Source: Nitrospirota bacterium
GTDB lineage: Bacteria; Nitrospirota; Thermodesulfovibrionia; UBA6902
Assembly: GCA_016222905.1 (NCBI GenBank)
Contig: JACRPZ010000048.1
Span: 1 to 58,225, forward strand
Reading direction: 5' to 3'
Length of the DNA: 58,225 nucleotides
Shown piece by piece: positions 14,730 through 23,334 of this stretch (the stretch's first letter is position 1; each line of letters opens with the position of its first letter). The notes below the pieces were generated by a model that was not told the origin of the DNA, searched no databases, and saw only the letters and a program-made list of their open reading frames with translations. Both the position numbers and the translations under genes were made by a program.

Positions 14730-15416
14730 CTACTTAGCCTCTGCTGTAGAATTCTCTGCTGGAAGACTTATGACATTTAAAGGGCATCTTTCGCATCTTG
14801 GTTTCGGCTTGCAATATTCTTTCCCAGCTTTCACAAAGAGGGCATGGTATTCATTGAATAGCTGGACATCAGGAAGAAGATTTCCGTGAAAAAAATCCTG
14901 AAGTTCATGATATGATGCATTTTCCGGCACAACACCGTGCCTATGAAGCACCCTCTTTGTATATGCATCAATTACAAAAACAGGCCGCTGAAAAGCGTAG
15001 AGGAGAATAGAGTCCGCAGTCTCCGGCCCTATGCCGTTTACATCAAGCAGTTTCTCCCTTAACGCATAAGTCTTCTCGGCATTCATACGTTTTATGCTGC
15101 CTTTGTAATTATTATCGAAGAAAGCAAGAAAATTCTTGAGCCTCCCGGCTTTTATATTGAAGTATCCGGCGGGCCTGATCAGCGAAGCAAGTCTTTTATG
15201 AGGCATTTTATGAAGTGTTTTTGAATTAAGCGCCTTATCTGTTTTTAAATTATTTATCGCCTTCTCTACGTTTCCCCAGTTTGTATTTTGTGTAAGTATA
15301 GCTCCGACAATTATCTCAAAAGGGGTGTCCCCGGGCCACCACTTCTGCGGGCCGAAGGAGATGTAGAGGGTTTTATAAATTCTGGAAATAATTTGCTTGT
15401 TATGCATTGCTGTCAT
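14730..15416 (-). CDS. Endonuclease III-related HhH-GPD DNA glycosylase
   Basis: This 228-residue protein belongs to the HhH-GPD base-excision glycosylases, in the endonuclease III-related branch that includes MagIII. It has ILTQNTNWGNVEKAI, the helix-hairpin-helix VNGIGPETADSILLYA and the catalytic aspartate in VIDAYTKRV. The lyase lysine found in true Nth is Glu here (GIGPETA), so a pure glycosylase is expected. The tail CKPKPRCERCPL has only three cysteines of a possible [4Fe-4S] site. It starts 4 nt after the hinT stop on the same strand. Confidence 0.85.
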   Translation of the reverse strand: MTAMHNKQIISRIYKTLYISFGPQKWWPGDTPFEIIVGAILTQNTNWGNVEKAINNLKTDKALNSKTLHKMPHKRLASLIRPAGYFNIKAGRLKNFLAFFDNNYKGSIKRMNAEKTYALREKLLDVNGIGPETADSILLYAFQRPVFVIDAYTKRVLHRHGVVPENASYHELQDFFHGNLLPDVQLFNEYHALFVKAGKEYCKPKPRCERCPLNVISLPAENSTAEAK

Positions 15417-22701: not shown

Positions 22702-23334
22702 TTATATATTCCTTGACGGGCAGATGTCGTAAAGAACGCATTCTTTGTGCATAGGCTTATTCGCCTGACACACATTCCTGCCGTGAAATATCAGAAGATG
22801 CGAAATATTGGACCATTCTTTCTGCGGCGTTACAGCCATTAAATCTTTTTCTATCTTTACCGGGTCTTCGTTCTCTGTAATTCCGAGCCTCTGAGAAAGC
22901 CTTCTCACATGCGTATCTACAGCGATTCCCTCATTGATGCCATATATGTTGGAGAGTATGATATTTGCTGTCTTTCTTGCAACCCCCGGCAAAGCCGTCA
23001 GCTCGTCCATAGTCTTTGGAACCTTTGAATTGAACTTTTCCGTTATCATCTTCGCTGATGCCTGAATGTTCTTTGCCTTGTTCCTGTAAAAATTTATCGA
23101 GCTTAGGTCCTTCTGGAGCGTGTCAAGATTGACATTCGCGTAGTCTTTAATGGATTTGTACTTTTTAAATAGTTTTTCAGTGACTTTATTAACATGCGCG
23201 TCCATCGTCTGCGCGGAAAGGATAGTCGCGGCGAGTAGTTCAAAGGGGCTGCCGAAATTAAGGGCTGTCTTAGGCTCAGGGTATTCTTTCTTCAGCAGCT
23301 TTAAGATTTCCGATATCTGTTCTTTAGCGTTCAT
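22702..23334 (-). CDS. nth: Endonuclease III
   Basis: Nth removes oxidised pyrimidines and cuts the abasic site. The 210-residue protein has LLAATILSAQTMDAHVNKVT, the helix-hairpin-helix LPGVARKTANIILSN with the catalytic lysine, and the catalytic aspartate in AVDTHVRRLSQRLG. The iron-sulfur loop is unusual: CQANKPMHKECVLYDIC reads C-x6-His-x2-C-x5-C, so the second of the four cluster cysteines is histidine. It is convergent with the NtrC gene. Confidence 0.94.
   Translation of the reverse strand: MNAKEQISEILKLLKKEYPEPKTALNFGSPFELLAATILSAQTMDAHVNKVTEKLFKKYKSIKDYANVNLDTLQKDLSSINFYRNKAKNIQASAKMITEKFNSKVPKTMDELTALPGVARKTANIILSNIYGINEGIAVDTHVRRLSQRLGITENEDPVKIEKDLMAVTPQKEWSNISHLLIFHGRNVCQANKPMHKECVLYDICPSRNI

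What the first reader, a model, noticed from the sequence alone, without database searches (positions are those of the whole stretch)
22702..22800. Endonuclease III with a Cys-to-His change in the [4Fe-4S] loop
Seen: the loop reads CQANKPMHKECVLYDIC, that is C-x6-His-x2-C-x5-C instead of C-x6-C-x2-C-x5-C; the codon is CAC. The catalytic Lys and Asp are intact. Known: four cysteines normally hold the cluster that helps DNA binding and has been proposed to act in redox signalling between repair enzymes. Inference: His may ligate iron, altering the cluster potential, or the cluster may be lost.
Basis: partly seen in the sequence, partly recalled or inferred. Interest (0 to 1): 0.5.

Follow-up and report, generated by a model that had tools for sequence, protein, structure and literature searches.

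The report
DNA-repair enzyme with histidine cluster ligand
This DNA-repair enzyme (endonuclease III) has a histidine where one of the four iron-sulfur-holding cysteines normally sits; the swap is not an error but a fixed trait of a widespread group of such enzymes, which makes it a natural test of what the iron-sulfur cluster does.

Summary
The minus-strand ORF 22702-23334 is an endonuclease III (Nth) whose cluster loop reads C189-x6-H196-x2-C199-x5-C205. These are its only cysteines. It is neither a sequencing error nor private to this genome. In a class-wide protein search that ignores the loop, all 110 Nth of its lineage have His there (CAC and CAT both used); all 49 examined of 79 in the other lineage have Cys. 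No third residue was seen. At E 1e-40 no genome of the class has both lineages, and the Cys-type's conserved neighbours never flank the His-type gene. His at this ligand also occurs in Aquificaceae, Methanoculleus, "Deltaproteobacteria" and another glycosylase family; a single His clade is rejected (p-AU 0.002, hand-picked rows). The PDB holds a mutant precedent: MutY entry 1kqj has His at exactly this ligand. Most likely H196 ligates one iron of a retained [4Fe-4S] cluster in a working Nth. The window genome also has a second, four-Cys, NTHL1-like Nth, so His196 is not needed for want of an alternative there; 99 of 110 His-type genomes show no such second enzyme. Altered potential is plausible but untested. 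Pfam's cluster model already tolerates His here; I found no paper describing it.

The parts
22702..23334 (-). nth gene, endonuclease III, 210 aa, His-ligand type
   Evidence: TIGR01083 251.4 bits, cut-off 211.7; AlphaFold2 model, mean pLDDT 95.4, matches endonuclease III 1orp at Z 29.4, rmsd 1.7, 209 residues
22720..22770 (-). iron-sulfur cluster loop C189-x6-H196-x2-C199-x5-C205
   Evidence: translation; same spacing as E. coli Nth
22747..22749 (-). codon CAC for His196 at the second cluster-ligand position
22972..22974 (-). catalytic Lys121 (E. coli Lys120)
   Evidence: invariant in the 50 His-type sequences of alignment A1
22915..22917 (-). catalytic Asp140 (E. coli Asp138)
   Evidence: invariant in the 50 His-type sequences of alignment A1

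Best explanation
The gene encodes a working endonuclease III from a lineage in which the second of the four cluster ligands is His. His196 replaces Cys as the ligand of one iron of a retained [4Fe-4S] cluster, which keeps the C-terminal loop folded for DNA binding; base removal uses Lys121 and Asp140 as usual. Shown here: the residue, its invariance, the intact partner cysteines, the predicted fold, the absence of a Cys-type copy of the same Nth group beside it in the class at E 1e-40, and repeated Cys/His change in the family. Inferred: iron ligation by His, cluster retention, enzyme activity. Not shown: any change of redox potential or link to lifestyle. The window genome has a second, four-Cys, NTHL1-like Nth (L002), so the His-type is not its only Nth.
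For: (1) His in 110 of 110 lineage members of the class, CAC 61 and CAT 49, while residues 195, 197 and 198 vary freely; the other three Cys intact in 109 of 110. (2) The 49 Cys-types examined, of 79 genomes, are all C-C-C-C; no third residue, although TGY to CAY needs two base changes. (3) Only three Cys in the protein. (4) In one search no genome of 189 has both lineages at E 1e-40; a second NTHL1-like Nth was found in 11 of the 110 His-type genomes, so in 99 the His-type is the only Nth these two searches found. In G022 and G015 the Cys-type neighbourhood is present without nth. (5) PDB 1kqj: MutY with His at this very ligand, crystallised; the title of Messick 2002, 'unusual histidinyl-coordinated cluster', is in two reference lists. 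(6) Pfam PF10576 scores His only 2.2 (L048) or 1.4 bits (L062) below Cys here, but Ser, Ala, Asp or Tyr 13.2-14.2 bits below, and His at the third ligand 12.5 below. (7) On trees the fewest Cys/His changes are 6-7, of which starred branches force 2 or 3; one His clade is rejected, p-AU 0.002.
Against: No metal or activity measurement exists for a His-type member. The window genome keeps a four-Cys NTHL1-like Nth as well, so here the His-type could be less essential. The window's own loop does not reach the Pfam cluster model; its Cys form scores 12.3, also under the 20.5 cut-off. His at the first or fourth ligand also costs little in Pfam (3.2 and 2.7 bits), probably because the local alignment drops the end column. 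In D. radiodurans Nth2, Ser at the first ligand gave [3Fe-4S] and an unstable protein, and Ser at the other three ligands, the second included, gave no protein (PMC9268735, passages).
Confidence: 0.78

Rival explanations
1. Labile-iron variant: the cluster forms, but the His-bound iron is exchangeable, so the enzyme cycles between [4Fe-4S] and [3Fe-4S] and the loop acts as a sensor or switch.
For: Ser at the first ligand of D. radiodurans Nth2 gives [3Fe-4S] apparently without loss of activity (PMC9268735 abstract and passages).
Against: That is another ligand and another residue. A merely labile site need not be strictly His; only His occurs in 110 of 110.
Confidence: 0.11
2. Cluster lost: the loop holds without metal and His is a packing residue.
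For: A bacterial 'clusterless MutYX' structure exists (8uuc, title).
Against: The three remaining Cys are intact in 109 of 110 His-type members; loss of the cluster should release them.
Confidence: 0.05
3. Zinc site: three Cys and one His hold a zinc ion instead of a cluster.
For: Cys3-His is a common zinc-ligand set (general knowledge, no call).
Against: Spacing and predicted fold are those of the cluster loop, and the MutY mutant is described as a His-coordinated [4Fe-4S] cluster (title only).
Confidence: 0.05
4. Sequencing error or a decaying gene in this genome.
For: One relative (G039, L255) has an in-frame TAG in the loop.
Against: His is shared by 110 of 110 lineage members; the window ORF is open and full length.
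Confidence: 0.01

Closest known systems
Canonical endonuclease III (E. coli Nth 2abk; G. stearothermophilus 1orn, 1orp, 1p59)
   Same: Fold, HhH motif, catalytic Lys and Asp, loop spacing 6-2-5, first, third and fourth Cys; Z 29.4 to 1orp and 26.5 to 2abk.
   Different: Second ligand is His, not Cys; one extra residue between catalytic Lys and Asp; GVARKTAN for GVGRKTAN in the HhH hairpin.
E. coli MutY mutant with His at the second ligand (PDB 1kqj)
   Same: His at exactly the same ligand position of the same loop.
   Different: A point mutant of an adenine glycosylase; here the His is natural and fixed in Nth.
NTHL1-like Nth of the same genome (L002)
   Same: Endonuclease III with the HhH and VDTH motifs; best PDB matches 9nzc endonuclease III and human NTHL1.
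   Different: Four Cys in the loop, as in 20 of 20 such loci read; 34% identical; TIGR01083 180.8 bits, under the cut-off.
His-bearing glycosylases under 40% identity (Chloroflexi, Methanotrichaceae, Micrarchaeota)
   Same: The same C-x6-H-x2-C-x5-C loop (23 of the 116 pattern loci with a hit).
   Different: Another HhH-GPD group: two of the 23 were scored and fit the DR2438 model best (138 and 161.9 bits, cut-off 400) and TIGR01083 only below its cut-off.

Membership tests
Endonuclease III (Nth, TIGR01083) | score above curated cut-off | tested here: met
   251.4 bits against 211.7
Endonuclease III (Nth, TIGR01083) | HhH-GPD fold and HhH motif | tested here: met
   PF00730 88 bits, PF00633 29.3 bits; model Z 29.4 to 1orp
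Endonuclease III (Nth, TIGR01083) | catalytic Lys and Asp | tested here: met
   Lys121 and Asp140 invariant in alignment A1, 50 sequences
Endonuclease III (Nth, TIGR01083) | glycosylase/AP-lyase activity | not testable with these tools
   needs purified protein
Four-Cys cluster loop (C-x6-C-x2-C-x5-C) | four cysteine ligands | tested here: not met
   three Cys and one His; only three Cys in the protein. It is filed as an Nth by the rows above, not as a four-Cys Nth
Pfam PF10576 EndIII_4Fe-2S | score above 20.5 bits | tested here: not met
   no hit for the window protein; three other His-types pass: L032 23.7, L062 29.9, L048 30.6
[4Fe-4S] protein | bound cluster | not testable with these tools
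   needs spectroscopy
MutY adenine glycosylase | TIGR01084 score above cut-off | tested here: not met
   77 bits, cut-off 286.5

The most novel reading that the evidence does not exclude
His at the second ligand is a recurrent, selected retuning of the repair-enzyme cluster: it shifts the 2+/3+ potential or adds proton-coupled redox chemistry, and lineages have swapped whole Nth genes between the two cluster types to suit their cells; some, like the window genome, run a His-type and a four-Cys Nth side by side. If so, redox behaviour of the cluster matters in vivo and is not only structural.
Probability: 0.2. Interest if true: 0.82.

Novelty: new variant of a known kind. Interest (0 to 1): 0.57.

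Why it matters
The role of the [4Fe-4S] cluster in DNA glycosylases (structural, or redox signalling along DNA) is a long-standing argument that rests largely on laboratory mutants. Here the same Cys-to-His change is natural, fixed, and in 99 of 110 genomes of the class carried by the only Nth that two searches found. Related His- and Cys-type enzymes can be compared directly for potential, DNA affinity and repair in cells. It also corrects the rule that the cluster loop of Nth always has four cysteines.

Tried and rejected
Sequencing error or pseudogene: rejected. Phage origin: the His pattern has 0 matches in viral contigs. Link to anaerobic life: a PF00115 gene at E 1e-85 or better is in 45 of 110 His-type and 40 of 79 Cys-type genomes, Fisher p 0.24 (threshold chosen after seeing the list); no support, and the window genome itself has one. 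The second type is in 11 of 110 His-type and 37 of 79 Cys-type genomes (Fisher p 2e-8), but kinship was not corrected for, so I draw nothing from it; two weak hits (G424, G145, 40-42% identity) were dropped before this count because they look like the ordinary Nth. Single origin of His: rejected on 55 hand-picked rows with the ligand column masked (p-AU 0.002); the same test on 121 rows did not finish; gain and loss cannot be told apart. Residues that change with His in three His/Cys group comparisons: only Asn134 and loss of Pro21 pass a loose filter (an apparent Met1 signal is an alignment-edge artefact); 210 columns were screened, so probably chance. One search clustered all ORFs, shadow ORFs included, and is replaced by the direct neighbour count. 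Literature: the searches listed no paper on a natural His ligand in Nth; the library lacks most subscription papers, so this is weak evidence of absence. Recalled, from no call: MutY Cys199 numbering, the link of entry 1kqj to Messick 2002, and anything of that paper beyond its title and one citing sentence.

Full report
The observation. The minus-strand ORF 22702-23334 (210 aa) is an endonuclease III: TIGR01083 251.4 bits with a cut-off of 211.7, PF00730 88 bits, and an AlphaFold2 model (50 aligned sequences, mean pLDDT 95.4) that matches endonuclease III 1orp at Z 29.4, rmsd 1.7, 209 residues. The cluster loop is C189-x6-H196-x2-C199-x5-C205, and these are the only three cysteines in the protein, so no other Cys can be the fourth ligand. 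Lys121 and Asp140 are intact.

A trait of a lineage. In the window's family 30 of 37 genomes have a match at E 1e-40 or better: four have His (the window and its 68-71% relatives in G015, G022, G029) and 26 have Cys. In the class, 189 of 230 genomes have a match. By best score they fall into two groups with a gap between 3.9e-78 and 2.6e-66: 110 genomes (57% identity or more) and 79 (53% or less among the rows listed). I read the loop of all 110 of the first group and of 49 of the 79. All 110 have His; in 109 the other three Cys are intact and one (L255, genome G039) has a TAG inside the loop. All 49 are C-C-C-C. His is CAC in 61 and CAT in 49, and residues 195, 197 and 198 vary freely: purifying selection on the amino acid. 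Cys to His needs two base changes; neither one-step intermediate (Tyr, Arg) was seen. A pattern that leaves this codon open matched 162 of 395 genomes of the phylum; by eye the rows listed all have TGY or CAY there, but I did not count them, and the list was cut.

One lineage per genome, in different places. In one search no genome has a second match that could be the other lineage; the one genome with two matches (G341) has a best E of 1.9e-54, so both are on the Cys side. Of 26 Cys-type loci in the window's family, all 26 carry at least one of three neighbours within about 1.5 kb (a metallo-beta-lactamase-fold gene in 23, birA in 21, coaX in 25); of 33 His-type loci none carries any. Gene names are mine, from the look of the sequences. 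In the His-type genomes G022 and G015 the three neighbours are still together with no nth between them; in the Cys-type genomes G025 and G027 nth sits between them; in G029 and the window genome only birA and coaX were found together. So the His-type gene sits elsewhere and the Cys-type gene is gone.

A second Nth. The window genome also encodes, at G000:C52, a protein 34% identical to the window Nth whose loop has four Cys. It scores 180.8 bits on TIGR01083, under the cut-off, and its best PDB matches are endonuclease III 9nzc (1.1e-50) and human NTHL1. So the His-type is not the only Nth-like enzyme here. Of 230 genomes in the class 69 match it at E 1e-40; two of these, at 40-42% identity, look like the ordinary Nth and were dropped. 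It is in 11 of 110 His-type and 37 of 79 Cys-type genomes. In the other 99 His-type genomes the His-type is the only Nth that these two searches found, though genomes are incomplete and weaker relatives may be missed. All 20 second-type loci read have four Cys, so both cluster types can be used in one cell.

Spread. A DNA pattern that fixes His catches 4 of 4 known His loci; its Cys twin catches 25 of 26 Cys loci. 116 have a hit to the window protein: 53 at 56% identity or more, 40 at 40-56%, 23 below 40%; L050 is cut short and L139 is a chance match. Titles name Nitrospirae, Deltaproteobacteria, Thermocrinis, Hydrogenobacter, Methanoculleus, Hydrothermarchaeum, Chloroflexi and others. The five His-types scored from such groups (L032, L048, L062, L085, L112) all exceed the TIGR01083 cut-off. 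Of the best 30 loci in the class of Thermocrinis 22 are His and 8 Cys; of the best 30 in the class of Methanoculleus 5 are His and 25 Cys. Among 27 genomes reached through named loci one (G467) has a His-type and a 45% Cys-type, and six (G458, G459, G460, G470, G471, G480) have a second hit at 32-37%, of which the two read (L367, L368) have four Cys.

Phylogeny. On a 124-row tree the fewest Cys/His changes are 6, with 3 forced by starred branches; with the ligand column masked, 6 with 2 forced (121 rows); on 55 hand-picked rows, masked, 7 with 3 forced, and one His clade is rejected at p-AU 0.002. Branch support is mostly weak and gain cannot be told from loss.

Why His is most likely the ligand. 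PDB 1kqj, 'Crystal Structure of a Mutant of MutY Catalytic Domain', has His at exactly this ligand of E. coli MutY, where the two other entries shown have Cys. [quoted passage not shown] Pfam's 17-residue cluster model scores His 2.2 bits (L048) or 1.4 bits (L062) below Cys at this position, but Asp, Tyr, Ala or Ser 13.2-14.2 bits below and His at the third ligand 12.5 bits below; His at the first and fourth, which are end columns, costs 3.2 and 2.7. Three other His-types score 23.7-30.6 bits and four Cys-types 19.3-24.2. So the curated model in effect already accepts His here, while a review gives the motif as four cysteines (PMC11138216, passage). The window's own loop misses that model, and its Cys form stays below the cut-off too.

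What is not shown. No call measures a metal, a potential or an activity. Review passages say that His ligands raise potentials and allow proton coupling in [2Fe-2S] proteins (PMC11138216); carrying this to Nth is inference. A test for a lifestyle link by oxidase genes gave nothing (45 of 110 against 40 of 79, p 0.24).

Verdict. It is a natural, fixed and recurrent variant of the Nth cluster loop, most likely a His-ligated [4Fe-4S] cluster in a working enzyme.

Noticed in passing
window 14730-15416 (-): Another HhH-GPD glycosylase with only three Cys (202, 208, 211; C-x5-C-x2-C, no fourth); nearest model 3-methyladenine DNA glycosylase PRK13913, 113.7 bits, cut-off 192. Possibly a degenerate or absent cluster.
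   Followed up: partly
L002, genome G000:C52:21561-22157: A second, NTHL1-like Nth with four Cys in the window's own genome; a four-Cys and a His cluster enzyme side by side.
   Followed up: yes
L255 (genome G039) and L069: His-type Nth with an in-frame TAG between His and the third Cys; the frame stays open beyond it. Pseudogene, error or readthrough not told apart.
   Followed up: no
L055, L057, L072, L073, L076, L083, L092, L098, L109, L121, L125, L136, L145 and others: Glycosylases under 40% identity to the window Nth that also have His at this ligand; two of the 23 were scored and fit the DR2438 model best. The share with His in that group was not measured.
   Followed up: partly
L428, L431 (genomes G022, G015): Cys-type nth absent from a neighbourhood that is otherwise kept, in genomes that carry a His-type nth elsewhere.
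   Followed up: yes
L079: Two copies of the His-type loop on one 7.2 kb Desulfobacterales contig, one in a 34-aa open stretch; duplication or assembly artefact.
   Followed up: no
window Nth residues 115-124: The His-type consensus reads LPGVARKTAN where the Cys-type consensus reads LPGVGRKTAN; L048 and L110 are His-type with GVG, so it is not tied to His.
   Followed up: partly
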